From Oscillospiraceae bacterium (lineage in GTDB: Bacteria > Bacillota > Clostridia > Oscillospirales > UBA929): a stretch of 38,066 nucleotides of DNA. The notes under the pieces were generated by a model. That model was not told the DNA's origin and did not search any database. It was given only the letters and a program-made list of their open reading frames with translations. How positions within the stretch are numbered: the first letter of the stretch is position 1; each line of letters opens with the position of its first letter. The position numbers and the translations under genes were made by a program. Below are positions 6,201 to 38,000 of this stretch, piece after piece. The DNA lies in assembly GCA_031255175.1 (NCBI GenBank), contig JAIRTA010000148.1, forward strand, positions 1-38,066, in the 5' to 3' direction.

Positions 6201-8058
6201 CGTGCTTCGCCTGCTCACCCACCAAAAAGGCGTGGGCAACCGGGACTGGGGCACCGAGCCGCCGGACGCCATCATTGCCAAGAACAACGCGAGCCTGCTC
6301 GAATACACCTACACGCTCACCCCGCTGTTCGCCGGCGACGACGCTATGGACAAATCCAAAAACATCATCATCCCCGCCGACGTCCCGCCGATGCTCAAAA
6401 CCGTCTACATCGACGGCGCGCCCATGACCGGCTTCAACGAAAAGGTCAGGGAATATTCCCACGCCATCGGGGCGAACGCTCCGTTCCCCACGGTGACCGT
6501 GGAGACTTACGACGGCGTGGAATACACCATCACCCCGGCGCAGGGCACAACGAGGCGGACCGTCATAAACCTGGCGATCGGGCCGGACGAGGACGCCTAT
6601 ACCATCAACTGGATCCGCAACTTCGACTTCCTGGACGGCATTTCGCTCAGCGGGACGCCGCTTCCAGGATTTACCAGGTCCAACCGCACGTTCGCGGCCG
6701 AAGCGCGGAGCGTGCCCACCGTCACCGTGACGCCCGCGGCCGGCATCACCGACATCACCATCCAGCAGCCGACCAGGGCCAACCCAAGGGCCGTGATCAC
6801 GGTCGAAAACGACTTTGGAGACCGGCAGGTCTACACCATAGACACTGTCGTCACCAACTACTCGACCCTCTGGTTCTCGGATTTTGAGGACAACAGCGTC
6901 TGGTCGTTCACGGCGAACAACAGTGACACCGCCAACGGCTCCGGCACCACCATAGGCGGGTTCGCGATCACCACGACCGACGAACCGCTCGACGGCAACG
7001 ACACATACAAATGGAAGTGGTCCGGCTCGGGGGGCAACACGGGCTACAGGGGCTCGACCAAGGTTTTCTCCCCGGCGACCACGGAAAACGACCTCCTGAT
7101 AAAGTTCGACTGGTACCCGGGCCTTTTGAGCAACACCTCCGGAAACAGAACCGAAGCGCAGATTTTGACGGGCGTCGGCGGCGCCAACACCCGGATCCTC
7201 ACGCTGGCCGCCCAAAACAACTCGCGGCTGTATGTCTACACGGGCAACACCTCGTCGAATTCGGGGACAACCATAGGCGCCGGGGCGGACTGGCCGACGC
7301 TGACCACCAGCAACACCACCTGGTATCAGGTTGAAATCTACCTCACCAGGGATACGGGCATCGCAAACGTCGTGGTCACAAATAAGTTCACCGGCGCCGT
7401 CGCCCGCGCGTCGAACATAGACACCGGCGTCCCCAACTGGTCATTCGGCCGGGTCCGGTTTGTCTGCACACGCTCCAGCGGAAACGCGGGCGGCACCATG
7501 TACATCGACGACTTCGGGGTCTACAGGAACACGGGCAGCGGCGCCATCGACACATCCGGCCTCGACGCCATGATCGCGCTGGCCGAGGCCCTGCTTCCGG
7601 ACGAGGCCATGTACGACGCCGACCAGTGGGCCGCCTTTGCCGCGGCGCTCACCGCGGCCAGGGCGGTATCCGCCGACCCGGGCGCCGCGCAGGCACAGGT
7701 GGAGGACGCGCGGGAGGCGCTCCTGGCGGCTATGGACATGGAGTTCCTGACCGGCCTCGCGGCCAAGGTCTCGCTGACCAAGGCCGACGGCAAGGCCACG
7801 GCGCGTTTCGCCCTCTACAATTACGCCGAAGAGGACGTCAAGGCGCTGTGCATCGTCGCCGTGTACGACAGCACAGGGCGGATGGTGAACACCAAGATGC
7901 TGGACGTCTCGGCGGACGCCGGCACGGCCAAGACAGAAGACCTCACCTTCGATCTGCCCGCGGGCCATCGGGCCGGCGCCTTCATCTGGAGGATGCCGCA
8001 CGGCGATTACCCGGACGCGTACGTCCCGCTCTGCGAGACGGCCGACATCGCAGGCTGA
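256..8058 (+). CDS. Very large secreted GH2 (LacZ-like beta-galactosidase family) protein: signal peptide, two DNRLRE/CBM96-like N-terminal domains, three Ig-like repeats, GH2 core, FIVAR-like C-terminal segment
   Basis: 2600-aa ORF; hydrophobic N-terminus MKSRKYFSLALALTLLLTMFPIFTMSEARA; GH2 motifs SLGNEAGTG (acid/base) and PYIMMEYLHALGNTGG (nucleophile), IWEYNDHSV; repeated 'Y.V.Q.G.A...TS.I.ITF...V.GL.A.A' modules. Confidence 0.88.
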   Translation: MKSRKYFSLALALTLLLTMFPIFTMSEARADDPDVVNIPVSEDAHTQMWSAQDLNNYGGMWILKICRPNADAADASNDSLYGRFGELSQPGDANTAYLKFTGLTEDQLARVEKAELILTHMGRRNAARSTSQNLIVRSVGNNWTEGGGGASSSTTAATGSMISGGYARDAANGLYAVPTGALGEPKEDGTGLLARSSPSFNPQSGGYAQNPNYNGHNNLNASAAVSGARITTDITAIVKALPRGETALSLAVSADDAGCQQTFFVSKEGAAALGNATADMIPTLRLTLGAPVVLEEKTFTVTLSDDAHVEGWNASGKSTNYGGATYMRVQRPNGAGVSVNDAVYGPFGEWQLGDPVDGKSALLKFKFTDEQWADIAAAAVVEAELSLTLFGRRYTDRNGADEQLRVRGVTNDWTEGGLSWNEMTDSSGGEAVFYPRTYLPGTETLSPGVIIEESQAFNSARTAGDTSSLQASGTPAANATVDGRQIKTDVSRTVKAMNMADVSKELSLGISTKSARCQELLLLSKEGAASATLGVIASGTDGAERAKLAPSLTVTLKIPAAADVKYSAQADGAAGTAVSTKIDFTFDKDVTGLTADAIALDPPGAADLGALTGDGRHWSVALSNVVPGPVTVALRAIPGFRFAPDGDGADVTALHRTAAAPVTYGVTQNGNAGLTTSEIEITFSAPVAGLPAGAVSLSPAAAGTLGAPVGSAGNTVWRIPVGNIGATAAVTVSIADSLDYTFTPAAADADRITLYKKALETAAYNVTQNGGASDTTSAVTITFDIAVHGLTADAIQISPAAAAAKGAVSASADNKTWTLAVYDVTAGDVTVTVTDNPEYTFVPGTNTVTLFSVAGGIDILPGTPAKNPLTFNEWTTPQDVKVNQVPSRSVIVPFKDAASAKANPTLRLSQLSPDSNIIMLNGVWKFNYAKTPAGKPDVNGVTSIPSDFTIDINVPSSWQTNMQYAGWYSDSTDTMDWPIYRNQRYAWMVGGDGVSGGSFGSAGFATGQNSINAANNAFNPVGTYMRTVNIDAADIGGTRFIITFLGVESGFYLYVNGSPVGYGEDSFTSCEFDITEFVKAGENLITAQVYRWTTGSYLENADVINYSGIYRDVYITKQPKVSIFDYRADTDFVSSTDYSSATFKLTVDVENTSEAAALGYTVAAALYDAEGNPVGGASGLNRAISSLPAGSRAKVPFETTVANPKMWSAEVPYLYTLVMELKDAGGTTLEAVSKRIGFRNFYMYNAGTTNSTSYMAINGQNVMLWGANRGQNHARGGRYIPYEDVVKDVRSAKEMNLNSFRTSHMPPCPHLIELCDEYGIYIMDEVAVETHDGRTNISPPGSTGYSGNFGGGDSRYTNAFRARMTDMVMRDRNNASVVIYSLGNEAGTGTNFEFMMDIIKGGSRLGITQEALDPKKIIHYQGWNDNNRVDIVGTMYPGYTNNASTNAKPYIMMEYLHALGNTGGAFDKYANHFESNLRVQGGYIWEYNDHSVYTIKPAAALPDRTRPDIDNPADADKFFFGFDGTWKQNSGTMTTNGSFCADGINFPDRSHKPMVAEISKQQQGLKFAQTAAMKDAKQVMILNGYAFLNANHFDIVWSILEDGKVLESAAFDPAAVDLAANRNSLTPNVPYPPTYPENSSQASDGARRNFNGTTKTVAVPYSDFARKPGAEYLLLIEYKLRQDTPYAAAGYVQGSEQFTLPEGVRGSDKYAEIRKMNPLSVDETGDVIRIAGTAEGKPFTVAFNRATGLMSAYNVDGKDLITRAPVGSFYRPETDQNSSIGGNGYDTTRKESYTDWADQGEDMSVVNVDVNADDARVTKVSFYSQLKNGSFFETKYDVYGNGSVVVSSKLTPSPAAPQQLGEFGMWMKVNSAFENVAWYGRGPIETYWDRKSGQNIGVHKGTVTDQYVPYVRIQENGNKADVRWISLRDGETGPGLLASMTYGVDYTGSPLEAVALHYEPKALSSYFSKNLHTYQAARSNEPVLRLLTHQKGVGNRDWGTEPPDAIIAKNNASLLEYTYTLTPLFAGDDAMDKSKNIIIPADVPPMLKTVYIDGAPMTGFNEKVREYSHAIGANAPFPTVTVETYDGVEYTITPAQGTTRRTVINLAIGPDEDAYTINWIRNFDFLDGISLSGTPLPGFTRSNRTFAAEARSVPTVTVTPAAGITDITIQQPTRANPRAVITVENDFGDRQVYTIDTVVTNYSTLWFSDFEDNSVWSFTANNSDTANGSGTTIGGFAITTTDEPLDGNDTYKWKWSGSGGNTGYRGSTKVFSPATTENDLLIKFDWYPGLLSNTSGNRTEAQILTGVGGANTRILTLAAQNNSRLYVYTGNTSSNSGTTIGAGADWPTLTTSNTTWYQVEIYLTRDTGIANVVVTNKFTGAVARASNIDTGVPNWSFGRVRFVCTRSSGNAGGTMYIDDFGVYRNTGSGAIDTSGLDAMIALAEALLPDEAMYDADQWAAFAAALTAARAVSADPGAAQAQVEDAREALLAAMDMEFLTGLAAKVSLTKADGKATARFALYNYAEEDVKALCIVAVYDSTGRMVNTKMLDVSADAGTAKTEDLTFDLPAGHRAGAFIWRMPHGDYPDAYVPLCETADIAG

Positions 8059-8100
8059 CCCGGCCGCGCGCCGGACTTTTCGTGAAACGCACATCAAAAA

Positions 8101-8134
8101 CAGGCCCCCGCGACCGGTCGGTCGCGGGGGCCTG
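8101..8134. terminator. Bidirectional intrinsic terminator between convergent genes
   Basis: Perfect 15-bp stem CAGGCCCCCGCGACC/GGTCGCGGGGGCCTG with 4-nt loop GGTC, A-run on the left and T-rich on the right; lies between the + GH2 stop and the - ATPase stop. Confidence 0.75.
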
Positions 8135-8163
8135 CTCCTTGTTTCAGCCTTTGGGGGGACGGT

Positions 8164-9261
8164 CTACCGGATGGCTTTTTCCGTCTCCCCGTCGAAGACG
8201 TGAAATTTGTCTATGTCGAAGGACAGCTTGACGGCATCCCCCGAACGGACCCCGAATTTCGCCGGAACCCGCGCGCGGACGCGGTTGCCGTTGAAGTCGA
8301 GATAGAGGAACAATTCGGGCCCCATCATCTCGACAATGGCGACGTCGCAGGAAAAAACGCCGTTGGTCTTCTCGTCGCCGCCGCACCAGTGGATGTCCTC
8401 CGGCCTTATGCCGACGATGACGGGTTTGCCCGCGCAGCGCCGCAGCGCGGCGGTGCGGCCTTCCGGCAGCCGCACGCGCGCGTCGCAAAATTGCAGGAAC
8501 ACATCGGCGCCCTCCACGGCGGCGGACGCGTCCAAAAAATTCATCTCGGGCGAACCGATGAAGCCCGCCACAAACTTGTTGTCCGGGGCGTCGTACAGCT
8601 TTTGCGGCGTGTCGATCTGCTGGATCTCGCCGCTCTTCATCACGATGATGCGGTCGGCCATTGTCATGGCCTCCGTCTGGTCGTGCGTGACGTAGACGAA
8701 CGTCGTCCCCAGCTTGCGCTGGAGCTCTATGATCTGGCCGCGCATCTCGGTCCGCAGCTTCGCGTCCAGGTTGGAAAGCGGCTCGTCGAGCAAAAACACG
8801 GCGGGGTCGCGCACCATCGCCCGGCCGAGCGCCACGCGCTGGCGCTGCCCGCCCGACAACTCCTTCGGTTTTCGGTTCAAATATTCGGATATATCGAGTA
8901 TGGCGGCGGTTTCGCGCACTTTTTTGTCGATCACGTCTTTGGGGACTTTGCGTATTTTGAGGGCGAACGCCATGTTTTTATATACGGTCATGTGCGGGTA
9001 CAGCGCGTAGTTTTGAAAAACCATCGCGATGTCCCTGTCTTTGGGGGCTATGTTGTTTACCACTTTCTCCCCTATGAGGATCTCGCCGGACGTCACCGCT
9101 TCCAGGCCCGCGATCATACGGAGCGTGGTCGATTTCCCGCAGCCGGAGGGCCCCACGAGTACGACAAACTCCTTGTCTTTGATCTCAAAGTTTAAGTCCG
9201 GTACAACCGTCACGTGGTTCCCGTAGGTTTTGACCACATGCTTGAAAGTAATCCCCGCCAT
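8164..9261 (-). CDS. Sugar ABC transporter ATP-binding protein (UgpC/MsmK/MalK type)
   Basis: Walker A GPSGCGKST, signature LSGGQRQRVALGRA, Walker B VFLLDEPLSNLD, C-terminal TOBE-like region. Confidence 0.93.
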   Translation of the reverse strand: MAGITFKHVVKTYGNHVTVVPDLNFEIKDKEFVVLVGPSGCGKSTTLRMIAGLEAVTSGEILIGEKVVNNIAPKDRDIAMVFQNYALYPHMTVYKNMAFALKIRKVPKDVIDKKVRETAAILDISEYLNRKPKELSGGQRQRVALGRAMVRDPAVFLLDEPLSNLDAKLRTEMRGQIIELQRKLGTTFVYVTHDQTEAMTMADRIIVMKSGEIQQIDTPQKLYDAPDNKFVAGFIGSPEMNFLDASAAVEGADVFLQFCDARVRLPEGRTAALRRCAGKPVIVGIRPEDIHWCGGDEKTNGVFSCDVAIVEMMGPELFLYLDFNGNRVRARVPAKFGVRSGDAVKLSFDIDKFHVFDGETEKAIR

Positions 9262-9286
9262 TGTGTTTCTCCTTCTCCCGGAACGG

Positions 9287-10654
9287 CTAACCGTCGATTA
9301 CCGCGGTGGATATCGACGCGCCGGGCATACGAATTTCCGTGGCTTTTCCGTTGATACGCAGGACAACCTTCTTCTCGTCGGCGCCGCGGTTGAGGATGAC
9401 GGCGACAACGGCGCCGTCCGGATTTTGCAGCGCGGTCACACCCAGATCGGTGGTGCAGCGGGAGAAAGCGACCCTGCGCGCGCCCGGCCGGATGTGTCGG
9501 GAGAAATGGGAAATGTATGAATACACAGGGCGCTCCTCCAATTCGGACATGCGCAGGTCGAACAAAAACGGAGCGTCGCAGAAGTTGCCGGCGTGATTGG
9601 GGCCGCCGTCCTGGTCGAGGACGACATTCCAGTCATAAAAGGCGTGCATACCGGCGTTGATGTTCCCTATCAGCTCGTGGGCGTACTTGGCCGCCACGCC
9701 GACGTCGTTCCTGTCGAACTTGAGAAACTCCACACACGCCTCAGACTGCACCAGTTTGAAGTGGGGGAAGCGCTCGCGGACGAGATCGACGGCCTCGAAG
9801 TGGTCCCCGCTGTACCAGTGGAACGCGGCGCCCTCGAAGACGCCGGGCGCCGCGTCCGCCATTGCGGCGGCGCGCTCGTACAGCCGCTCCTTGTTGTGGT
9901 CCCAAAAAAGCAGTTTCACCGCGCCGTGGCCGTTCTCATCGAGGGCGGGCCGGAGATAATTGACAAGAAAATCCCGCTCCTCCTCCGCCGTATATACGCA
10001 TGAATCCCATATTTGCACGGCCTTCGGCTCGTTTTGGGCGGCGAGCCGGACGATGTGAAAACCGATCTTTTTGAGCTCCGTGACGTACCGGCAGATGTAG
10101 CGCGCAAACAGCGGATAGTACCGCTTGCGCAGCCTGCCGCCGCCGTTGCGCTGGCCGTTTGACTTCATAAAGGCGGGCGGGCTCCACAGAGACGCCATGA
10201 GCGGTATGGGTTCCCCGTACGCGTCCTGCGCCGCGTCCAGAAGCGGCTTTATGTACTTGACGGCCCTGTCGAGGGTGAATGTGGCAAGCGTCTCGTCGTT
10301 TGGCTCCACGGCTTCGTAGTGCTCCACAGAAAAATCGCAACTGTCTAAGTGGATCCTCCCCGCCGTATATCCCGCGCCGCCTTCTCCGAAATACGCCCTG
10401 ATCAGGCGCTTGCGCTCCCCCTCCGGCATCCGCGCGAACACATAGCCCGCCGCGTCTGTAAACGCGCCTCCAAACCCCTCGAACGTCTGGTATGTTATCT
10501 CGGGGTGGATGTTGACGACGTCGTTTTCAATACCGCCGTCGTCGGAAAAACCGTGGACAGACGCCGTTTGGGTCCTCTTGCCGCCGCCGAACGCGGTTGT
10601 AAACAGGCGAAGCGTCTGGGGGTCGAACCGGGCCGTATTTGTCATATCTGTCAC
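9287..10654 (-). CDS. Glycoside hydrolase family 30 (glucosylceramidase-like)
   Basis: FEGFGGAFTDAAGYVFARMPE, LASLWSPPAFMKSNGQRNGGGRL, RLAAQNEPKAVQIWDSC, HWYSGDHFE, VQSEACVEF; typical GH30 clan A motifs. Confidence 0.9.
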   Translation of the reverse strand: MTDMTNTARFDPQTLRLFTTAFGGGKRTQTASVHGFSDDGGIENDVVNIHPEITYQTFEGFGGAFTDAAGYVFARMPEGERKRLIRAYFGEGGAGYTAGRIHLDSCDFSVEHYEAVEPNDETLATFTLDRAVKYIKPLLDAAQDAYGEPIPLMASLWSPPAFMKSNGQRNGGGRLRKRYYPLFARYICRYVTELKKIGFHIVRLAAQNEPKAVQIWDSCVYTAEEERDFLVNYLRPALDENGHGAVKLLFWDHNKERLYERAAAMADAAPGVFEGAAFHWYSGDHFEAVDLVRERFPHFKLVQSEACVEFLKFDRNDVGVAAKYAHELIGNINAGMHAFYDWNVVLDQDGGPNHAGNFCDAPFLFDLRMSELEERPVYSYISHFSRHIRPGARRVAFSRCTTDLGVTALQNPDGAVVAVILNRGADEKKVVLRINGKATEIRMPGASISTAVIDG

Positions 10655-11400
10655 CTCTCGTGATTTTTACGGTATTCGGACGGACTCATGCCTTTTATCT
10701 TCTTGAAGATAATGGAAAAATATTTTTCGTCGCGGTAACCGACTTTGTACGCCACCTCGTAAGTTTTGATCTTGTTGTCCACAAAGTAGTCGCAGGCGCG
10801 CTCCACCCTGATCTGGTTGAGGCAGTCCGTAAACCCGCACCCCACGGTGCGCTTGAACAGCGTGGAGAGATAATTCGGCGTGATCCCTATATGCTCCGCG
10901 ACGATCGTCAGCGTCAGTTCGTCGGGGTAATGGTCGTTCATGTAGTCGAGGGCGTTGCTGATAAACCGGTTCATAACGGCCGGCACAACCGGCTTTTTGG
11001 GCTCGCTTGCGCGAAACGGTTCTCTTTTGCAGGCGGCCCAAATGGCGCGGAGAATGTCGGACGTGCCCGTGGGTTTGAGCAAATATTCCACCGCGCCGTA
11101 GCGCAGCGCCAGTTGGGCGTATTCGAACTCGTCGTGGCTCGACACAATGATGGTTCTGGGCAGTATGCCAATGGCGGACGCCTCTTTCATCACCTCGATG
11201 CCGCTCTTGACCGGCATTTTGATGTCCAGGAGCATGACATCGGGGTTGTGCCGAATGATGATGTCGATCGCCTCCTGCCCATTGGCCGCGCAGAAAATCT
11301 CAGACACATATTCGGCGTTTTTGCTGATGAAGGACTTCAGGCTCTCTCGCACCCGTTCCTCGTCCTCAGCAATCAGCAGGCGTATTCCTGAATCGCTCAT
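10651..11400 (-). CDS. Response regulator, REC + AraC-type HTH (YesN-like)
   Basis: N-terminal LLIAEDEERVRESL, VMLLDIKMPVKSG; C-terminal AraC HTH ...HIGITPNYLSTLFKRTVGCGFTDCLNQIRVERA...YKVGYRDEKYFSIIFKKIKGMSPSEYRK. Overlaps GH30 and kinase genes by 4 nt. Confidence 0.93.
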   Translation of the reverse strand: MSDSGIRLLIAEDEERVRESLKSFISKNAEYVSEIFCAANGQEAIDIIIRHNPDVMLLDIKMPVKSGIEVMKEASAIGILPRTIIVSSHDEFEYAQLALRYGAVEYLLKPTGTSDILRAIWAACKREPFRASEPKKPVVPAVMNRFISNALDYMNDHYPDELTLTIVAEHIGITPNYLSTLFKRTVGCGFTDCLNQIRVERACDYFVDNKIKTYEVAYKVGYRDEKYFSIIFKKIKGMSPSEYRKNHER

Positions 11401-13202
11401 AGCCTTGCCTCATTTCGTCTTATCAATGGTAGTTTGATACGAACTCTTGTGCCGATGTTCGGCTCACTCTCAATGGCAAGTTCGGCCGCGGCGCCGTAGC
11501 GCAGGTTCATACGCTCCTTTACATTTCTGACGGCGTAGTGCCCCACCCTCTGGTACGCATACCGGCTGTCGTCCTTTGCGCACAAGATCTCCTGCACCTT
11601 CTCGCCGGGCATACCGATGCCGTTGTCCTCGATGACAAACGAGAGGAAATCGCGGTCTATACAGCCGGTGATCCGGACGTAGCCCAGTGTTCCATTTTTT
11701 TCCACTCCGTGGACAATGGCGTTTTCTACAAAGGGCTGGATGATCAGCTTTGGAATTTGGTAGGAGAGCAGTTCGCTGTCCACGTCAATGCTGTAGTCCA
11801 ATTTTTTGTCGAAACGCAGTTTTTGGATCTGCAGATAGTGGCGCACGATTTTTAACTCCTGCTCCACCGAGACCTCGCTGTTTCCGTTGGACAACAGCAT
11901 ACGAAACAATTCGGACATGGCCAATATATCGTCCGCAAGCCCTTCCTGGCTGCATTCCGTCGCCTGCCAGTAAAGGGCGTCCAGCGCGTTGTAGAGGAAG
12001 TGGGGGTTGATCTGGGCTTGGAGTGCGTTCAGTTCGCTCTGTTTCTCCCTGAGCGCCAGGACGTAATTTTTGTCGATCTGCTCGCGGATGTCTCTCACCA
12101 TCGTGTTGAACGTCTCGGCCAACTCGGAGATCTCGTCGCTGCCCTCGACGCGCACCTGCTGGTTGAAGTCGCCGCTCTTAAACTTGTTCATGGAGGCGTA
12201 GAGCAACGTGATCGGCCGGGTGACGATCCGTGAGGCGAACGAAGACAGCGGCCAGATGCCCGCCAAAAGGGCGAACGCCGACAGGCACGTGACCAAAAAC
12301 CCGCTCCTCGCCCACGCGTCCCAATCTCTCTTCTTTGAGAGATAAAAGATCGTCTGGCCCGACGTCTCGCGGCGCTGGGAGAATATGTAATATTTTCCGT
12401 ATTCCAGCGGCTCGCTCGCGGCCTCCGGGGGGCGCGCCTCCAACCACACGGCGGCCTCGTCCGGCACGTCGCCGTACCGGAATATCTCGTTGCCGCCGGC
12501 GTCGAGGATCAGGACGCCCTCGTTGCTTTGGGGCATGGCGTTCGCGCATATGCTCTCGTACCCGTCCAGATTGATGCCGAGCGACAAAAACCCCAATTTG
12601 CGGCTCTTTGACAGATCGTACAATTCGCTGCAGGCGACGATCTTGTCTGAGTGGTTGTTGATAAAAAGCCCGACGTCGTCGCTGTCGATCCGGGTCCACA
12701 CAACGGCGCCGTTCCCCTCCACGGCCCGCTTGTACACGTCCAGGTCCCGGAGGTTTGCGATGTCGGGGGTGAACACGCTCCTGTCGCGGCTCACGGAGAA
12801 GGGCGTGAGCCCGTTTTCCGGGTAGAGGACGACGGTCGCGATCTTTGTTTTGACGGCCAAGATGTCTTTGATGACGTTGACCGGCGTCTTGTTCACCCAA
12901 AAGAAGGGATCCTTGGCCGTCTCCCGGGGGTCGGCGGTCAAGATCCGCTCTATCTCGTAATTGATGGAGAGATATGTCGCGATCTCCAGCATATCCTGCT
13001 CCAGGTATCCGATGTTTTCGTCGATCGACGAGACGGCGCGCTGATATTGCCGCGTGCGTTCGCTTATGACGGCGGAGCGGCTGTTCCAGTAAATCGCAGT
13101 TTCCGTCGTAAGAAGCGCCGGCAGAAGAACGGCATAGATGCTCAAAACGATCTTATGCTTGATCCGCATCCCCAAATGATGGTTTTTCTTTATGCCGCAC
13201 AT
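11397..13202 (-). CDS. Sensor histidine kinase (YesM-like, HAMP + His_kinase)
   Basis: N-terminal TM, HAMP region, QINPHFLYNALDALYWQA motif, C-terminal HATPase VENAIVHGVEKNG / IEDNGIGMP. Confidence 0.93.
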   Translation of the reverse strand: MCGIKKNHHLGMRIKHKIVLSIYAVLLPALLTTETAIYWNSRSAVISERTRQYQRAVSSIDENIGYLEQDMLEIATYLSINYEIERILTADPRETAKDPFFWVNKTPVNVIKDILAVKTKIATVVLYPENGLTPFSVSRDRSVFTPDIANLRDLDVYKRAVEGNGAVVWTRIDSDDVGLFINNHSDKIVACSELYDLSKSRKLGFLSLGINLDGYESICANAMPQSNEGVLILDAGGNEIFRYGDVPDEAAVWLEARPPEAASEPLEYGKYYIFSQRRETSGQTIFYLSKKRDWDAWARSGFLVTCLSAFALLAGIWPLSSFASRIVTRPITLLYASMNKFKSGDFNQQVRVEGSDEISELAETFNTMVRDIREQIDKNYVLALREKQSELNALQAQINPHFLYNALDALYWQATECSQEGLADDILAMSELFRMLLSNGNSEVSVEQELKIVRHYLQIQKLRFDKKLDYSIDVDSELLSYQIPKLIIQPFVENAIVHGVEKNGTLGYVRITGCIDRDFLSFVIEDNGIGMPGEKVQEILCAKDDSRYAYQRVGHYAVRNVKERMNLRYGAAAELAIESEPNIGTRVRIKLPLIRRNEARL

Positions 13203-13227
13203 AGAACACCGCCCCGACTGATATTGT

Positions 13228-14073
13228 TTACCCCTTTACGGCGCCCATGCTCACGCCTTTTGTGATGTGTTTGCTCAGCAATACGTATATGAGGATGGCC
13301 GGCGCGGCGGTGAGCGTCATGACGGCGAATTGCACCGCCGCGTTCGCGCGGTACTGCCCCGTGAACTCCAGGATCGAAAATGGAAGTGTTTTCCATTTCG
13401 ACGTGCTCAGGTATGTACTGGCCATCATAAATTCGTTCCAATTGTTTAAATATGTCATGATGACGACGGTGATGAGCGACGACTTCATCATGGGCGTGAT
13501 GACGCTGCCGAGAAGACGGAAGGTCCCGCAGCCGTCGATGATGGCGGCCTCCTCTATCTCCTTCGAAACGGACTCCATATAGCTCGCCGCGAGGAAAAGC
13601 CCCTGCGGCAGTGAGAACGCCACGTAAGGCAAAAGAAGTGACCACAGTGTATCACGGACCCCCAAAAAGTCATATATCATATAATTTGGAATCAACGTCG
13701 CGTGGATCGGGATCATCATCCCCAGCAGGATGATGTTTTTGGCGGTCTGCGAAAACTTCCAGCGCATTCTCGTGACGGCGTAGGCCGAGCAGATGGAGAG
13801 CGCCAGCACAATGGCGACCGCGAGCGTATTGACAACCAGGCTATTTTTTAAGTATAACAGAAAATGTCCGTCAGTGAAAGCCTTCGGATAGTTCCCCCAC
13901 TGAATTTCCCGGGGAATGATGAGCAGATTTGAGGTAAAGAACTCGGTGTTGCTGGCAAAGGAGAAATCGATGAGCCATATCAGCGGAAAGAGCTGCACGG
14001 CCGAAAACAGCGTGAGCGCGACCCAAATGATGCCCCGCCCCAGGGAGAATTTTGTTTTTATCTTGTCCGTCAC
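13228..14073 (-). CDS. Carbohydrate ABC transporter permease (MalG/AraQ type)
   Basis: Multi-TM; EAA-like loop KEIEEAAIIDGCGTFRLLGSVITPMMKSSL. Confidence 0.93.
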   Translation of the reverse strand: MTDKIKTKFSLGRGIIWVALTLFSAVQLFPLIWLIDFSFASNTEFFTSNLLIIPREIQWGNYPKAFTDGHFLLYLKNSLVVNTLAVAIVLALSICSAYAVTRMRWKFSQTAKNIILLGMMIPIHATLIPNYMIYDFLGVRDTLWSLLLPYVAFSLPQGLFLAASYMESVSKEIEEAAIIDGCGTFRLLGSVITPMMKSSLITVVIMTYLNNWNEFMMASTYLSTSKWKTLPFSILEFTGQYRANAAVQFAVMTLTAAPAILIYVLLSKHITKGVSMGAVKG

Positions 14074-14076
14074 GGC

Positions 14077-14952
14077 TCAGCCCTCCCTTCGAAACAGCCG
14101 GTTGAGGAACAATGTGGTAAGAAGACAGATGATGACAAACACGACGCTTATCGTATTGCCGTACCCGTAGTTGCCCGACTGAAACGCCTGCTTATACAGA
14201 TAGGTCGCCACAAACTGCGTCTCGTTCCCGGGGCCGCCCTTTGTCAGGAGATAGACCGTCTCCATCTGCTTCAGCGCCGAGATGAGGGCGAGCGTCACGT
14301 TCACTTGGATCACGGGGCGCATCAGCGGCAGGGTGATCGCGAAGAACATCTTTTTGTCGTCGCAGCCGTCGATGGCGGCGGCCTCATACAACACGGGGTC
14401 GATGTTCTTCACGCCCGTGTAGTAGATGAGCATACCCCAGCCGAAGCCGTGCCACACGAGCACGATGAGCACCGACCAGATGGCCCGCCCCGTGCCGAGC
14501 CAGTTGACGCCCTCCCCGCCGAAGAAGCGCGCGATCACGTTAAAAAGCCCGAAATTCGTGTTGTAGACGTATTTCCATAAAGTGGCAATCACGGCGGAGG
14601 ATATGATGTTGGGGACAAAGTACGCGCTCTTAAAAAACGTCTCCGCGCGGCCGCCGATCCTGTCCAGCAGCCACGCCGCGAAGATCGCTATCGGGTGCTG
14701 GATGAGAATAAAGCCCGCCGCGAGCAGCGCCGAATTGAGCAAGGCGTTCCAAAACGCCTTGTCCTTTGCGAGGGCGGAGTAGTTCTCAAACCCCACGAAC
14801 GTGAACCGGCCGATGCCGGAACTGTTGGTGAAGCTGTAAACAAAGCTGAGGAGAATCGGCGCGAGCACGGCGAACACGAAGGCGATCAAGCTCGGCGCGA
14901 TGAGAATCGCGATGACGCGTTTGTCCCTGAGCATCTTTTCCATATCACTCAC
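14077..14952 (-). CDS. Carbohydrate ABC transporter permease (MalF/UgpA type)
   Basis: Multi-TM; EAA loop PVLYEAAAIDGCDDKKMFFAITLPLMRPV; adjacent to the second permease and SBP. Confidence 0.93.
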   Translation of the reverse strand: MSDMEKMLRDKRVIAILIAPSLIAFVFAVLAPILLSFVYSFTNSSGIGRFTFVGFENYSALAKDKAFWNALLNSALLAAGFILIQHPIAIFAAWLLDRIGGRAETFFKSAYFVPNIISSAVIATLWKYVYNTNFGLFNVIARFFGGEGVNWLGTGRAIWSVLIVLVWHGFGWGMLIYYTGVKNIDPVLYEAAAIDGCDDKKMFFAITLPLMRPVIQVNVTLALISALKQMETVYLLTKGGPGNETQFVATYLYKQAFQSGNYGYGNTISVVFVIICLLTTLFLNRLFRREG

Positions 14953-14976
14953 CCCTTACCGGCGGCCGGAAGCCGT

Positions 14977-15117
14977 ATAATACCCGTGAGCGATAACAAA
15001 CCGCCACAACCGACCGTCTTTTTGCCCTCCGGCCGCGCTGTCCTACCGGCGTCCGCCCGGCCGGAGGGCAAAAATCCTGCGGATATTTTCGGCAGATGTT
15101 ACCGCTCGCGGGTATAA
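14977..15117. repeat. Nested inverted-repeat structure in the intercistronic region between SBP and permease genes
   Basis: Inner perfect 17-bp arms TTTTTGCCCTCCGGCCG (15019-15035) / CGGCCGGAGGGCAAAAA (15058-15074); outer 18-nt arms ATACCCGTGAGCGATAAC / GTTACCGCTCGCGGGTAT, 16/18 complementary. Confidence 0.75.
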
Positions 15118-15124
15118 CAAACCG

Positions 15125-15156
15125 GCGGGTGCCGGGGGGGGGATTCCGGCACCCGC
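15125..15156. repeat. GC-rich hairpin immediately downstream of the SBP stop (possible attenuator/3'-end stabiliser)
   Basis: 11-bp stem GCGGGTGCCGG/CCGGCACCCGC around a loop containing a run of G (+ strand). Confidence 0.6.
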
Positions 15157-15173
15157 GGGTTCCTCTGCTGTGA

Positions 15174-16454
15174 TCAGTCCGCCAGCGCGTTTATCGCACC
15201 CTCCGGGGTGATGGATTTGATGGAGATCTGCTGTGACAGGTCTTCAAACTTCGTCTTGAAATCGGCCGAGCCGAGATCGTTGATCGTCGTGCCGCTGATG
15301 GACGTGGCGCCCGCGAAGATGTCGATCAGCTGAAGCTGGACGGGGGTCTCGCTGCCGGTCTTGTATTGGGAGAAGTCCTGCGCCGACATACAGACGTTGT
15401 TTTCCCAGGCAATCTTTGTCCAGTTTTCCGGCTTGTAGATGTAGTTGAGAAGTTTTACGGCCTCGTCTTTGACGGGGCTCTTCGCGATCACGGAGTGGCC
15501 GCCGCCGTTCCATGCCGCGATGTCCGTCGCGACGCCGACGCCGCCGGACACGACAGGCATTGTGAAGGCGCGGATGTTTTCACGGATCTCCGGATCGATC
15601 TCCTGGTTGTTGGCCATGCTCATCTCCCAGCTGCCCATGTAGAACATGGCGGCCTGGCCGTTGATGAACAGATTCTGCGCCGTGCCGTAGTCCTGCTGTT
15701 CAAACCCGGGCTGGAACAGATTGGCGTCGTAAGCGTCTTGGAGGAGCCGGGCCGCCTCGGCGTACATCGGGTGCGAAAAGTCGCCGCCGGATATGGCTTT
15801 TAAGGTCTCCGGCTGGTAGGCCGTCCCCCCGATCTTGACGAGCAAGTCTGTGATGAATATGGAGATGGGCCACTTGTCGTTGCCGTCCATCGCGACGGGC
15901 GATATGCCGGTGGCCGCGATCTTGGGGGCGAGCGCGAGCAATTCGTCATACGTGGTCGGAATCGACCAGTTGTTGTCGCTGAACAGCTTTTGGTTGTAAT
16001 AGAAAGCGATCATATCCGTGTTTCTCGGCAGGCCGTACAGTTTGCCGTCTTTGGAGAACCCGGCGAGCGAACCCTCAACAAACCCGTATTCGCTGTAATC
16101 ACCGGGGTTGAGTTCGGCGATCAGCCCGGCGTCGATGTACCCGTCTAAGAAAGACGGCTGCCCCCATACGCTGATGAGGTCGGGCAAGCTCGTCCCCGAG
16201 GCGTATGCCTTCATCTTGATCTTGTACGCTTCGTCGTCCAGCGCCTCCACTTGGATCTCGACGTTTGGATTCTCGGCGATGTACTGGTCGAAAATCTTCT
16301 GCTCCACGAGCCCTTGCCCCGTTGTTCTGTCCGGCAGATTGCTGAATACCTTGATGACGGTTTTGCCCCCGTTTGCCGGCTGGCCGCTCGGCGAACACGC
16401 CGCCGCTCCGAAGAGCATAACGGCCGCCAGGAATAACACTAGGATCCTTTTCAT
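15174..16454 (-). CDS. Extracellular sugar-binding lipoprotein (SBP family 1)
   Basis: Lipobox-type signal MKRILVLFLAAVMLFGAAACSPSG; SBP family pattern; start chosen at ATG 16454 (preceded by GGAGAGGGGA RBS) rather than the ORF-track start 16475. Confidence 0.9.
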   Translation of the reverse strand: MKRILVLFLAAVMLFGAAACSPSGQPANGGKTVIKVFSNLPDRTTGQGLVEQKIFDQYIAENPNVEIQVEALDDEAYKIKMKAYASGTSLPDLISVWGQPSFLDGYIDAGLIAELNPGDYSEYGFVEGSLAGFSKDGKLYGLPRNTDMIAFYYNQKLFSDNNWSIPTTYDELLALAPKIAATGISPVAMDGNDKWPISIFITDLLVKIGGTAYQPETLKAISGGDFSHPMYAEAARLLQDAYDANLFQPGFEQQDYGTAQNLFINGQAAMFYMGSWEMSMANNQEIDPEIRENIRAFTMPVVSGGVGVATDIAAWNGGGHSVIAKSPVKDEAVKLLNYIYKPENWTKIAWENNVCMSAQDFSQYKTGSETPVQLQLIDIFAGATSISGTTINDLGSADFKTKFEDLSQQISIKSITPEGAINALAD

Positions 16455-16676
16455 CAATGATTCCCCTCTCCACAAGTTTGTGTGGTGGTATTTGCGCGGA
16501 AGATCTAATCTCTGTATCTATTATAGCGCGATTTTCGGTCAATTGTGTCATAGTATCTTTAAAAAAGGTGGGCTATCCTACACAGGTCACCGAATCTCTC
16601 CGCAGGTGCGAGGGCGAACCAGCGCCGCCGCGGGTAAACCGGCGGCGGCGCTGATCCGCTTGCTCACGCTGCTATA

Positions 16677-19600
16677 TCAATTAGAGGGAATGGTGAAACT
16701 CTCTGTGAGGGGCGCGTAGGTTTCGCTGTCCCAGATGTACCCGGTGCGGTTGGCGCCGCCCGGCAGCAGCAGGCTGTACTTCGTGTTGGACAGCCACGAG
16801 CCGATGGCGGTGCTCTTGTCGGCAAACGGCTGCGGGCCGCGGGCCTCTCCGCCGACGATTTCCGAGTTGCCGCCGACGCCGCCGTTTACGAGCACCGAAC
16901 CCTTGATGGTGATCTGCTCGGTCATCATGTCCGCCAGTCTCCCGCCGTCCGCGTAGCTGGCGACGATGGCGTTCGCCGTCCGCGCCGTCGCCGTCCTGTT
17001 GAGTATGCTCAGGCCAACGAAGTCGTCGTAGACGCCGACGTCGCCGAGGGTGATCTCAGAACCGGAGGGCGTCAGTCTCGACCAGTACTCATTGTCGGGG
17101 TGGAACTCGTTTGGCGCGAGGAACATCGTCGGCCCAACCCCGCCGTTGTTGCCGGGGCCCTCGCCGTTGATGACGTGCGCGATCTCGCCTCTCCTCTGCG
17201 AGATGGAGAGTGTCCCGACCTGGTGGATCTTGATGTTGGCGTTCTCGGCCGGCGTGATGAAGGCCGACCAGATTGTGCGGAACGGGACACTCATATTCTG
17301 GACGAACACGTCATACGACACAAGGCCCCAGCCCTCGAAGTTCTTCACGTCGTCGCCGACGCGGAAGGCGGCGTACCCCTGCTGTCTTTCGGACAGCGGC
17401 CCGATGTAATCGTACTTGGGGTCTGCCAGCGACGTGTCGCGCCAGGCGCCGGGCACGCCCTCGTCGGTCTCCGGCGGGTCGTACGGGCGCTCGTTTTGCA
17501 GGTAGAAGCAACGCCCGTCATCGCCGTTCCAGAGGACGTCGTACTTCTGGAAGTGCTCGGCGTGCAGGCCGTACGTAATCACGTGGTCGCCGTTTACCAC
17601 CAGGCCGTTGTCCGTCTGGTTGAGCGTCCACCCGACTTGGTCGCCGTGGTCGGCGCGCCAGATCCACGCGTGGTCGAGGATCGTGTAGTCGGCGTTTATG
17701 ATGAGGCCGTTCTTTGCCTTGTAGGGGACGTTTGTGGGCAGCCCGCCGACACGTATAATGGCGTCGGAGAGCACGATCGGGCTCGCCTTCATCTCCGGGG
17801 TCTCTGTGAAGCCGCCCTCGCCGACGACAAGCAGCGCCTCGCTGGCGTTGGCAAAGTCGTTTCCGGCGGCGGGCCCGGCGTCAAACAGGAGGCCGGCGAC
17901 GCGCACGCCGGGTACGTCCGCCACTTGCACGCAGACGTTCCCGTTCAGCGGACGGAGCGAGGCCTCGCCCACGCCGAGCAGCACGGCGTTCGGCTCGGTG
18001 ACGCGGATCTCTTTGTCGAGCTTGTACACGCCGGGGGTAAAGAAGATGTTGCCGTCTTTTGTCTTCATGCCGGCGATGATCTGATCGGCGTTCATGGCCT
18101 CATTGGCCACGAAGAAGTCGCTCAGCAACCGGCTCTCGCCCGGGCCCATGCCCCCGTTTTCTTTGCCGGCGCCCCACGAGAGGCCGACGGCGTCTTTGCG
18201 GTAACCGGGCACAAACACTTTGTAGTCGCCGGTGCCGTCGTTCGCGTCCACATCGAAGTAGAGGAACGGTTTTTCTGCGATCATCGGCGTGTGCGCCACA
18301 TCGACGACGATCCATGAGTAGGACTGGTTCCACTGGGTCCCGTCCTGTGTCGTGTTGCCCTGCATGACGCCGTTCCAGATGAGGCCGTCTGTGCCGGCCA
18401 TCGCGTTGTTGCGGGTGTAGAACTGCTGCTGCCCCTGGTAGGTCTGCCAGCCCGTGTAGCTGTCGGCCAGGAAGCCGCCGCTCGCGGAACCGCCGAGCTG
18501 GAACGTGAGCGAGCCCGTTTTCACCCTGCGGACGGGGGAGGCCTGCGACACGGCGAACACATTCCCGCCGGCCATAGTCTCCATATTTTCAAATGTGCGC
18601 CAGAAGTTCTGCGTGACGTTGCCGCCGCCGTTGTAGCCGCCGCCTTCCCAGGAGAACACCTGCACCGACTGCGTCTGCACGTCGGTCGGCAGCTTGCCGA
18701 GCCCGGCGATGTGCATGTAGAAGTTGAGGTACATGCCCAAGTACGTAAAGTCGGCCGCGTGCCCCTTGGCGGGCCTGAACAGGAGCGCGACGCGGTCGTC
18801 GGTGAACTGGTTGTTGGCGTCCGCGCCGGGAGGGGAATTGCTGCCTATGCGGCCGCCCCAGAAGAACGCCCTGGAGTAGTTGTCGGTGACCGTTGCCACC
18901 GTGAGCGGGGCGTCGTTCTCGGTGAAGATCTCGGTGTTCGGGAACGTCGTGATCTCAAGGGAAACCACGTCCGACAACGGGCTGTCGATGTAATCGCCGT
19001 TTCCGTTGTACGCGGTCACCTTGTACCAATCCCACACGTGGTCGGTTCCAAGGTTGTACGTCGTCGTCGCCGCGTCGGTGACGGCGACCTGCGTGGTAAA
19101 CGAGGCGGGCGCGTATCTGCCGAGCCCGCGGTAGAGTTTGTAGCCGGTCGCGCCCGCCACGGCGTCCCACGAGACGACCGCGCCGTTGCCGTCGCCCGTC
19201 ACTTTGACGTTCTGGGGAGCGGGCAGGGCACTCTCGGCGTTGATGACGTTGAGAGCCACGGCTTTTTCCGTCCCGGCGGCGTCATTGAACTTGAGCGCGA
19301 TGCTGTGCGCGTCGCCGTTCGCCAGCGCCAGCGCGGAGAGCGCGGCGGCCTCAATGACAACGGTGGGAACCCTGCCGCTGCGGAGGGTGTAGGCGACGGG
19401 GCTGCCGTCGAGAAGCAGGGACGCGATGCCGGTCGCCCGGAGAGACCCGAAGCCCATCTTCACGTCGATGACCACGTCTTCGGGGATCTTTTTGTTGAAC
19501 GTCACGAGGGACGTGCCCACGCTCGGAGTCTCCCCGCCGGGGATGTTGGCGGTGATCAGCAGCCCGTCCGAATCGTTGTTGGCGGTGTCCGTCACGACCT

Positions 19601-35937: not shown

Positions 35938-36665
35938 GTGTGGGAAAATTCCGAGGAGAAGAAAATTGCATCCAATTATAGTGTAGTGGTGAAGGAACTG
36001 CGTGAAGGTATGCATTATTATGTCGGCACTGACGAAGAAGCATATTATTATAGTGGCCCACCATCTACGAATATTAAAAGCACCTCGTCGCCACTGCCGT
36101 CTCCGACAACGACGCCATCTCCGGCACCAATGCCGTCACCTGCGCCAACAGTGACGTCATCGCCGTTGCCGATTTCGACTCCACTGGTGACGCATTTTAG
36201 CACGCATTGGGATAAACAATGTGATAGAAGATGCCACTTATGCTATGATTATTTTTACGAATACCCGGGCATATGAAAATAATCGAGCATTTGAAAAAAA
36301 GTATGATAATCGTGGTGGCATTTTGCTTGATATGGCAGATAATACTCTAAAAAACTCCAATATATCTGCATGACGATGCAAGACGAATTCAAAATGCCGC
36401 AAATCGGACTCGACAAGAAATAACTGTAGTGGGGAGCAGAGCGGAAGGAACAGCAACAGCTACATCCGATTGGGATTATTTCATGTCTGGGAATTCGGCA
36501 CAAAGACATTCGGCGGCGAGTTCTGTTCCAAGCGGCACTGCAGGTGGAGAAATAAATTCGATTGGAAGAGAAACAGGGATCGATATTTTCACTAACAACC
36601 CTAACTCGTCAAAATATCAACCACTCGATCTAACAAAGCCATATATCACATTTTATCCAAAGTGA
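35938..36665 (+). pseudogene. Orphan Rhs-CT-like toxin module: P/S/T-rich linker + nucleotidyltransferase-motif C-terminal domain, with apparent frameshifts
   Basis: Linker SVVVKELREGMHYYVGTDEEAYYYSGPPSTNIKSTSSPLPSPTTTPSP...; downstream in shifted frames ARIGINNVIEDATYAMIIFTNTRAYENNRAFEKKYDNRGGILLDMADNTLK | TPIYLHDDARRIQNAANRTRQEITVVGSRAEGTATATSDWDYFMSG...GIDIFTNN (GS-x10-DxD NTase signature). Confidence 0.65.
35976..36183 (+). repeat. Copy 1 of the 208-bp linker repeat
   Basis: Ungapped match to 37565-37772 with 4 substitutions. Confidence 0.95.
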
Positions 36666-36680
36666 TAGGAGAAATGTATC

Positions 36681-37142
36681 TTGAAGATTCTAACAACCCA
36701 AGAATTAATATTACTTAATCAATATGTCCAAGGCGTTGTGTCAAGAGATGAGATAGACGGTTGGTTTCTATCTCTCGATGAAGCTGATAAGCAAGCAGTA
36801 GTGAGGAATACGTGGATATTAGCTATACAGGCACAGGTCAGGGAAATGGATATCCCGGTTGCGATCGTGGCTTCTGAATTGAAATCTACTCACACGCCGG
36901 TTGTTATGCTTACTAAAGGAAACACTTCATTACACAATAGAGGATATAAGCTCTCGACATTAAAGGGAGCAATATTAACACAAGCATTTTTATTTGTATT
37001 GGAATGTTTTGTTTCAGCTGAACGCAGAAGAAAAGAAAAAGAAGGGTCATCAGAGTGCCATCATTGGTGGCACAAAGATCTTTCTGACAGAGAAATTGTG
37101 CAAGAGATATTAAGAAATCATGGTAGCGAAATAAAATTGTAG
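36681..37142 (+). CDS. Putative immunity protein (resembles DUF5958)
   Basis: Intact 153-aa ORF 15 nt after the toxin stop, TTG start preceded by AGGAG; LNQYVQGVVSRDEIDGWFLSLDEADK..., ASELKSTHTPVVMLTKG, HHWWHKDLSDREIVQEILRNHG. Confidence 0.55.
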   Translation: MKILTTQELILLNQYVQGVVSRDEIDGWFLSLDEADKQAVVRNTWILAIQAQVREMDIPVAIVASELKSTHTPVVMLTKGNTSLHNRGYKLSTLKGAILTQAFLFVLECFVSAERRRKEKEGSSECHHWWHKDLSDREIVQEILRNHGSEIKL

Positions 37143-37265: not shown

Positions 37266-37560
37266 AATCGGCTGAAGACAGTCAAAGACCACAACAATGT
37301 ATTGCTGGTGACATATACGCCGGTAACCAGCTGACCCAAACGGACGGCGAGGACCGGACGATGACCTACACCTACAACGTCCGCAACTTGCCTGTCACCC
37401 GCAGCGATCCAGAGGGTGTGGGCATTAGACGCCAAGACGGTGAGCATCACCTACCGGGCGGACGGCACAGTGGCCACAGAGACAGACCGCAACGGCGTGA
37501 CCACAACCTACACCTACGACATCCACGGCCGGACGCTGGGCAAAACGGCGGGCGGTAGCA
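37266..37560 (+). pseudogene. Degenerate Rhs/YD-repeat fragment
   Basis: NRLKTVKDHNNVLLVTYT | YAGNQLTQTDGEDRTMTYTYNVRNLPVTRSDPEG | ALDAKTVSITYRADGTVATETDRNGVTTTYTYDIHGRTLGKTAGG, spread over different frames. Confidence 0.7.
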
Positions 37561-38000
37561 CAATTTATAGTGTAGTGGTGAAGGAACTGCGTGAAGGTAT
37601 GCATTATTATGTCGGCACTGACGAAGAAGCATATTATTACAGTGGCCCACCATCTACGAATATTAAAAGCACCTCGTCGCCACTGCCGTCTCCGACAACA
37701 ACGCCATCGCCGGCACCAATGCCGTCACCTGTGCCAACAGTGACGTCATCGCCGTTGCCGATTTCGACTCCAATTGTCCGATATGGCGGTATGGATATCA
37801 GCGATAAGTTGTTGCAATTTGTATCTGATTATGAGACATACCATGAAATGCCGTACAGGGGTCAAGATAGCCAGAATCGTACTGTGGCGTATGGGCATGT
37901 TATAACAGAGGAGGATGGCACAAAGTATGACAACGGAATATCCGAGGAAGCGGCATTGAGGGTGTCCCAGGCGCCGTGGAAATTCGATATCGCAGGATAG
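37416..38000 (+). CDS. Rhs C-terminal fragment: YD repeat - 208-bp linker - truncated GH24 lysozyme-like domain
   Basis: TETDRNGVTTTYTYDIHGRTLGKTAGG ... MDISDKLLQFVSDYETYHEMPYRGQDSQNRTVAYGHVITEEDGTKYDNGISEEAAL then abrupt loss of family similarity. Confidence 0.6.
   Translation: MWALDAKTVSITYRADGTVATETDRNGVTTTYTYDIHGRTLGKTAGGSTIYSVVVKELREGMHYYVGTDEEAYYYSGPPSTNIKSTSSPLPSPTTTPSPAPMPSPVPTVTSSPLPISTPIVRYGGMDISDKLLQFVSDYETYHEMPYRGQDSQNRTVAYGHVITEEDGTKYDNGISEEAALRVSQAPWKFDIAG
37565..37772 (+). repeat. Copy 2 of the 208-bp linker repeat
   Basis: Ungapped match to 35976-36183 with 4 substitutions. Confidence 0.95.

What the first reader, a model, noticed from the sequence alone, without database searches (positions are those of the whole stretch)
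35938..36665. Orphan polymorphic-toxin C-terminal cassette with a nucleotidyltransferase signature
Seen: after the P/S/T-rich linker the coding sequence leads into ITVVGSRAEGTATATSDWDYFMSG (GS-x10-DxD) and downstream GIDIF, which match the catalytic signature of pol-beta/MNT-type nucleotidyltransferases. There is no Rhs core directly upstream; homology to an Rhs junction starts at about 35976. Established: Rhs/WapA/CDI loci carry displaced 'orphan' CT-immunity modules that recombine into the main gene. Inference: this is a displaced toxin module that may modify RNA, protein or nucleotides by NMP transfer.
Basis: partly seen in the sequence, partly recalled or inferred. Interest (0 to 1): 0.72.

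Follow-up and report, generated by a model that had tools for sequence, protein, structure and literature searches.

The report
Orphan Rhs nucleotidyltransferase toxin–immunity cassette
Without a delivery gene of its own, this bacterium keeps a broken copy of a bacterial weapon tip that probably attaches nucleotides to targets in rival cells, together with an intact gene that probably protects against it; the same pair sits at the end of intact weapon genes in two other phyla, which gives a likely job to a protein family (DUF5958) that had none.

Summary
Confirmed, with corrections. 35976-36183 is a P/S/T-rich Rhs linker repeated at 37566-37772. It leads into a tip with GS-x10-DxD and GIDIF. 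The tip gene is not one reading frame: coding changes frame twice (36188-36274 and 36348-36371), so this copy is a broken orphan. The conserved tip itself (36372-36662) is uninterrupted.

The same tip ends intact Rhs proteins in an Enterobacteriaceae genome (74% identity) and a Streptomyces plasmid (54%, Rhs plus HINT). Profile comparison places it with minimal Pol-beta/MNT nucleotidyltransferases (93% probability; 100 column shuffles reach at most 1.8%).

It is DUF5958 (PF19383), and a DUF5958 gene directly follows the tip in all three phyla. On Streptomyces plasmids DUF5958 also directly follows a Fic gene (3 of 16 loci examined) or sits near barstar/SMI1-type immunity genes. I conclude that DUF5958 is probably the immunity protein of this toxin.

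The toxin class is not new: Ntox45 (2012) is an Rhs/HINT tip with a DxD motif, later tied to Pol-beta NTases, listed without an immunity partner. New are the DUF5958 pairing and the wider phyletic range. Target and activity are untested; the tip's structure prediction failed.

The parts
35976..36183 (+). Rhs/tip junction and P/S/T-rich linker, copy 1 (SVVVKELREGMHYYVGTDEEAYYYSGPPS...TPSPAPMPSP...)
   Evidence: 98% identical to 37566-37772, sharp edges; in the frame of ORF 35938-36276
36184..36370 (+). Stretch between linker and tip, read in another frame (...INNVIEDATYAMIIFTNTRAYENNRAFEKKYDNRGGILLDMADNTLKNSNIS); the frame changes at each end, so this copy is broken
   Evidence: stop-codon map by frame; its end 'NIS' matches the start of the tip in an intact relative; no relative found for it alone
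36372..36662 (+). Nucleotidyltransferase toxin tip, GS-x10-DxD plus third carboxylate (GIDIF); stop at 36663
   Evidence: differences from L004 are mostly at third codon positions: 20/11/52
36681..37142 (+). DUF5958 (PF19383) gene, 153 aa, intact: predicted cognate immunity protein
   Evidence: PF19383 E 1.5e-34; DUF5958 directly follows the tip in L004 and L007 too
37312..37565 (+). Fragment of Rhs (YD) repeats of a second module, itself split over two frames
   Evidence: YD_repeat_2x 21.3 bits and RHS_repeat 19.4 bits; frames
37566..37772 (+). Junction and linker, copy 2, fused in frame to the Rhs fragment
37773..38000 (+). A different, short second tip (ISDKLLQFVSDYETYHEMPYRGQDSQNRTVAYGHV...), lysozyme-like by eye; ends at a stop 66 bp before the contig end
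   Evidence: no Pfam or PDB hit, so the lysozyme reading is only a visual resemblance

Best explanation
This is a displaced (orphan) C-terminal cassette of an Rhs polymorphic toxin: junction/linker, then a roughly 100-residue minimal Pol-beta/MNT-type nucleotidyltransferase tip, then a DUF5958 gene that encodes its immunity protein. In intact relatives the tip rides at the end of an Rhs protein, is released in a neighbouring bacterium and, by inference, uses GS-x10-DxD plus the GIDIF aspartate to bind Mg-NTP and transfer an NMP (most likely AMP) to a target, most likely a protein; DUF5958 protects the producer. In the window copy the tip gene is broken at two frame changes and has no start or export part of its own. 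It can at most act as a donor for recombination through the shared linker, or is decaying, while the intact DUF5958 gene may still protect against kin that carry the toxin. Shown: anatomy, homology, pairing with DUF5958. Inferred: catalysis, protein as target, immunity function, recombination.
For: The tip lies at the C-terminus of continuous Rhs proteins in two other phyla. DUF5958 comes directly after the tip in all three: E 1.5e-34, 1.8e-23, 2.3e-38; start/stop overlap in L004, near-abutting in L007, about 15-bp gap in the window. The family is otherwise absent from the other 397 sampled genomes of the window's phylum and the other 368 of the class of L004's genome. Profile-profile comparison with MNTs gives 93% probability, and its global alignment puts GIDIF on the third MNT carboxylate; 100 column shuffles reach at most 1.8%, and DUF5958 as a negative control 0.95%. 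MntA's GSx10DxD is experimentally an adenylylation motif, with D71 as third Mg ligand (PMC7641770). The linker is repeated 1.6 kb downstream in front of another tip. Tip and DUF5958 have GC3 of 30% and 32%, against 84% in the neighbouring PaaK-like gene, as expected of acquired DNA. Further DUF5958 genes sit near barstar genes in 7 of 16 plasmid loci, one of which also holds an SMI1/KNR4 gene. Orphan Rhs-CT modules that lack starts and recombine into the main gene are experimentally known (PMC3967940).
Against: Structure prediction of the tip failed (pLDDT 50). NTP_transf_2 scores stay just under Pfam's cut-off, and the strong part of the profile match covers only 29 columns around GS-x10-DxD. 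Only three tips are known here, two of them outside the window's phylum. No full-length Rhs with this linker is in the assembly: the one intact Rhs found (C60, 3397 aa) has a different tip. No activity or immunity was tested.
Confidence: 0.75

Rival explanations
1. The roles are reversed: a HEPN/MNT-like (type VII) toxin-antitoxin pair, in which the nucleotidyltransferase is the antitoxin and the helical DUF5958 protein is the toxin it adenylylates.
For: The NTase resembles MntA, precedes its partner as in MNT-HEPN pairs (PMC3710099), and DUF5958 is predicted mostly helical, though at low confidence.
Against: The tip is the C-terminal end of Rhs proteins, a delivered-toxin position; DUF5958 lacks the HEPN motif RX4HXY in all 13 members tested; DUF5958 often stands alone or near immunity genes, unlikely for a toxin.
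Confidence: 0.07
2. The tip is a nucleotidyltransferase toxin, but acts on RNA (for example tRNA 3' ends, as MenT toxins do) or on small nucleotides rather than on a protein.
For: MenT nucleotidyltransferase toxins extend tRNA acceptor ends (PMC11541572, PMC10435456); Ntox45 stands in the 2012 table just before the heading 'Other toxins that act on nucleic acids', which suggests its authors first grouped it with nucleic-acid toxins.
Against: Nearest sequence matches are MNT protein adenylyltransferases; DUF5958 also pairs with Fic, a protein AMPylator family. Both are indirect.
Confidence: 0.3
3. The window cassette is a dead remnant with no present role; the pairing there is history only. (This can be true of the window copy while the best explanation holds for the family.)
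For: Two frame changes in the tip gene, a split Rhs fragment and a short second tip in the same array.
Against: DUF5958 and the conserved tip are uninterrupted; the frame changes could be assembly errors, which cannot be checked without reads; displaced cassettes are by nature unexpressed and may still be used by recombination.
Confidence: 0.35

Closest known systems
Ntox45 (Zhang et al. 2012, PMC3482391; tied to Pol-beta NTases in PMC5512222)
   Same: Polymorphic-toxin tip, alpha+beta with DxD motif, with RHS and HINT architectures, in Actinobacteria; the Streptomyces relative has just this architecture.
   Different: Ntox45 is listed from Actinobacteria, alphaproteobacteria and Bacteroidetes with no immunity partner; here there are members in the window's own phylum and in gammaproteobacteria, and a constant DUF5958 partner. 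Its alignment was not available, so membership is unproven.
MntA of the HepT/MntA (type VII) toxin-antitoxin system
   Same: GS-x10-DxD, SDWD motif, third aspartate, about 100 residues.
   Different: Here it is a toxin tip fused to Rhs, and its partner is DUF5958, not HEPN.
Orphan Rhs-CT/immunity modules (Salmonella LT2, PMC3967940)
   Same: Displaced tip plus immunity gene, no start, shared stretch usable for recombination.
   Different: The shared stretch is a P/S/T-rich linker of 208 bp rather than 522 bp shared with the main rhs gene, and no matching main gene is in the assembly.
MenT nucleotidyltransferase toxins
   Same: Nucleotidyltransferases that are toxins.
   Different: To my knowledge larger, intracellular TA toxins of another family acting on tRNA; not sequence-matched here.

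Membership tests
Rhs polymorphic-toxin orphan CT/immunity module | Same tip found fused to a full Rhs protein elsewhere | tested here: met
   L004 and L007
Rhs polymorphic-toxin orphan CT/immunity module | Stretch shared with another rhs module | tested here: met
   35976-36183 = 37566-37772, 98%
Rhs polymorphic-toxin orphan CT/immunity module | Immunity gene directly downstream (toxin-immunity order) | tested here: met
   DUF5958 3 of 3; order as in PMC3482391. Protective function itself not tested
Rhs polymorphic-toxin orphan CT/immunity module | A main rhs gene in the same genome with matching junction | tested here: inconclusive
   None found: the intact Rhs on C60 lacks this linker; but the assembly is in 159 contigs and C59 ends inside the array
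Pol-beta/MNT nucleotidyltransferase superfamily | GS-x(n)-DxD and third carboxylate | tested here: met
   GS, both D of DxD and the third D are invariant in the three tips
Pol-beta/MNT nucleotidyltransferase superfamily | Score over the Pfam NTP_transf_2 cut-off | tested here: not met
   20.7, 15.2, 19.1 vs 21 bits; so not filed under PF01909 itself
Pol-beta/MNT nucleotidyltransferase superfamily | Pol-beta fold | tested here: inconclusive
   model pLDDT 50; profile-profile 93%
Ntox45 | alpha+beta tip, DxD, RHS/HINT architecture | tested here: inconclusive
DUF5958 (PF19383) | Pfam model over cut-off | tested here: met
   119.5 bits vs 23.6
Type VII TA (HepT/MntA) | HEPN partner with RX4HXY | tested here: not met
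   absent in 13 DUF5958 members

The most novel reading that the evidence does not exclude
DUF5958 is an immunity family against NMP-transferring toxins of two unrelated folds, the Pol-beta NTase tip and Fic. It would then protect by acting on the modification or the shared target rather than by plugging one toxin's active site.
Probability: 0.15. Interest if true: 0.7.

Novelty: new member of a known kind. Interest (0 to 1): 0.45.

Why it matters
It gives a testable function to a protein family of unknown function (no paper in the library mentions DUF5958), supplies a candidate immunity partner for a toxin class listed without one, and provides intact relatives on which nucleotide transfer by an Rhs tip could be measured. 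If the Fic association holds, it points to a general antidote against NMP-transfer toxins.

Tried and rejected
Structure prediction of the tip from two sequences failed and of DUF5958 was weak (pLDDT 58), so no fold search was run on either. No relatives of the tip in phages, viral contigs, E. coli (DNA search only), 57 other related genomes, 397 others of the phylum or 347 others of L004's family. DUF5958 has no PDB relative by sequence. PADLOC gave only weak PDC-S09 and cyclase hits to the tip. RelA/SpoT was not pursued: the motif is GS-x10-DxD and no such family matched. Aminoglycoside resistance was rejected because the domain is about 100 residues and sits at Rhs C-termini. The stretch before the tip (36184-36370) found no relative.

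Full report
What is in the window. The finding lies near the right end of a 38-kb contig (C59 of a 159-contig, 2.5-Mb assembly). A PaaK-like ligase ends at 35806. After it, with no Rhs core, comes a 208-bp block (35976-36183) that returns at 37566-37772 with four differences and sharp edges on both sides. It encodes SVVVKELREGMHYYVGTDEEAYYYSGPPS and a P/S/T-rich linker. At copy 2 the block is fused in frame to Rhs (YD) repeats and followed by a different tip. At copy 1 it is followed by the tip of this finding. The two copies share a junction and carry different tips, which is the arrangement of polymorphic-toxin cassettes.

Frames. Stop positions show the linker frame open to 36274, a second frame open between 36188 and 36371, and the tip frame open between 36348 and 36663. 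The last residues of the middle frame (NIS) and the first of the tip frame (DDARRIQ) together match the continuous NISPNDATRIQ of the Enterobacteriaceae relative, so the second break lies inside the conserved region. I searched the pieces apart and mended nothing. Whether the breaks are real or assembly errors cannot be told without reads. The Rhs fragment at about 37312-37565 is also split between two frames.

The tip. In frame +1, 36372-36662 encodes DDARRIQNAANRTRQEITVVGSRAEGTATATSDWDYFMSG...GRETGIDIF...PYITFYPK. A scan of bacterial and archaeal genomes found one relative: L004, Enterobacteriaceae bacterium B14, 68% over the best segment (74% in the alignment). A tblastn of plasmids found one more: L007, Streptomyces sp. 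NBC_00390, 51.5% (54%). In both, the tip is the C-terminus of a continuous Rhs protein, after an RHS core in L004 (PF03527 E 7.6e-13) and after Rhs repeats plus a HINT domain in L007. Across the three tips the GS, both aspartates of DxD, the GIDIF aspartate, and residues of an RHS...S.P.G...GE stretch are invariant. Differences between the window and L004 fall at codon positions 1/2/3 as 20/11/52, so the protein sequence has been conserved.

Is it a nucleotidyltransferase? NTP_transf_2 is the best-scoring Pfam family for the window and L007 tips, and the only NTase family for the L004 ORF, always just under its cut-off (20.7, 15.2, 19.1 vs 21 bits). MntA is the first NCBIfam hit (E 0.009) and MNT antitoxin the first PDB hit (E 0.22); none of these is significant alone. 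I therefore took 18 MNT proteins from genomes of the same order and compared profiles: probability 93% over 29 columns. One hundred column-shuffled versions reached at most 1.8%, and DUF5958 as a negative control 0.95%. Forced global alignment puts the GIDIF aspartate on the third MNT carboxylate. In MntA, GSx10DxD mutants lose adenylylation and D71 is the third Mg ligand (PMC7641770). AlphaFold on two sequences gave no usable model (pLDDT 50). I regard the NTase assignment as probable, not proven.

The partner gene. The next gene, 36681-37142 (153 aa, intact), is DUF5958 (PF19383, E 1.5e-34). In L004 the next gene, whose start overlaps the tip's stop, is DUF5958 (1.8e-23), and in L007 the next, nearly abutting, reading frame is DUF5958 (2.3e-38), although it is missing from the gene table. 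DUF5958 is rare outside Streptomyces: 1 of 398 genomes of the window's phylum and 1 of 369 of the L004 class, these being the two tip-bearing genomes themselves. The DUF5958 proteins differ far more (23-28% identity to the window's) than the tips (73 and 53%), yet the pairing holds. I looked at 16 further DUF5958 loci on plasmids (15 Streptomyces, 1 Spirosoma). Three directly follow, with a 4-bp overlap, a Fic protein with the motif HPFEDGNAR. Seven lie near a barstar-family gene, and one of these loci also holds SMI1/KNR4 and DUF4253/DUF4240/DUF4265 genes. The rest looked solitary, unannotated or had other neighbours. Zhang et al. describe SUKH (SMI1/KNR4) and other immunity genes gathered in 'polyimmunity loci' (PMC3482391). 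Position, order, constancy and neighbours all point to an immunity protein. The paper library has no mention of DUF5958.

Origin and state. Tip region and DUF5958 have 40% and 38% G+C, and GC3 of 30% and 32%, in a 61% G+C window whose neighbouring gene has GC3 of 84%; the cassette looks imported. The genome holds one intact Rhs of 3397 aa on contig C60 with another tip and without this linker, and an Rhs core end at the edge of C100. The main gene that shares this linker may lie in an assembly gap, or be lost. Orphan Rhs modules without start signals that recombine into the main gene are known from Salmonella (PMC3967940).

Mechanism, with steps marked. Shown: a tip-plus-DUF5958 cassette, homologous tips on Rhs proteins, MNT-like active-site motif. 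Inferred from families: delivery by Rhs, NMP transfer from Mg-NTP. Inferred weakly: the acceptor is a protein (MntA and Fic are both protein AMP-transferases). RNA remains open: Ntox45 stands in the 2012 table next to nucleic-acid toxins and MenT toxins act on tRNA. The reversed reading, NTase as antitoxin of DUF5958, is unlikely because the tip sits at the delivered end of Rhs proteins and DUF5958 lacks the HEPN motif.

Compared with what is known. Zhang et al. 2012 list Ntox45: alpha+beta, DxD motif, RHS and HINT architectures, no immunity partner. In 2017 a later paper linked it to minimal Pol-beta NTases and MNT antitoxins and suggested NMP transfer to proteins (PMC5512222). The Streptomyces relative has exactly that architecture, so this is likely the same class, though I could not test it against the Ntox45 alignment. 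So the toxin is a new member of a known kind. What appears new is the DUF5958 partner, the spread to further phyla, and the hint that DUF5958 also serves Fic toxins.

Noticed in passing
37566-38000: Second orphan tip behind linker copy 2, lysozyme-like by eye (DYETYHEMPYRG..TVAYGHV) but with no Pfam or PDB hit; short, ends 66 bp before the contig end.
   Followed up: partly
L012 3348-4402, L013 3333-4384, L014 3333-4381: Streptomyces plasmids: DUF5958 overlaps by 4 bp the end of a Fic gene with an intact-looking HPFEDGNAR motif, behind a third unknown gene.
   Followed up: partly
L016 3372-4414: DUF5958 overlapping a 2'-5' RNA ligase/2H phosphoesterase gene (PF13563 E 3.7e-19) on a Streptomyces antimycoticus plasmid.
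   Followed up: no
L032 (C60) 6639-16832: Intact 3397-aa Rhs protein in the same genome, with an SLH-like start region by eye; its hydrophobic tip was not searched.
   Followed up: no
L007 8293-8676: The DUF5958 gene behind the Streptomyces Rhs-HINT toxin is missing from the plasmid gene table used here.
   Followed up: yes
DUF5958 alignment A6: Most Streptomyces DUF5958 proteins share a C-terminal CxxxCxHxWH pattern that could bind a metal; only partly kept in the window copy (SECHHWWH).
   Followed up: no
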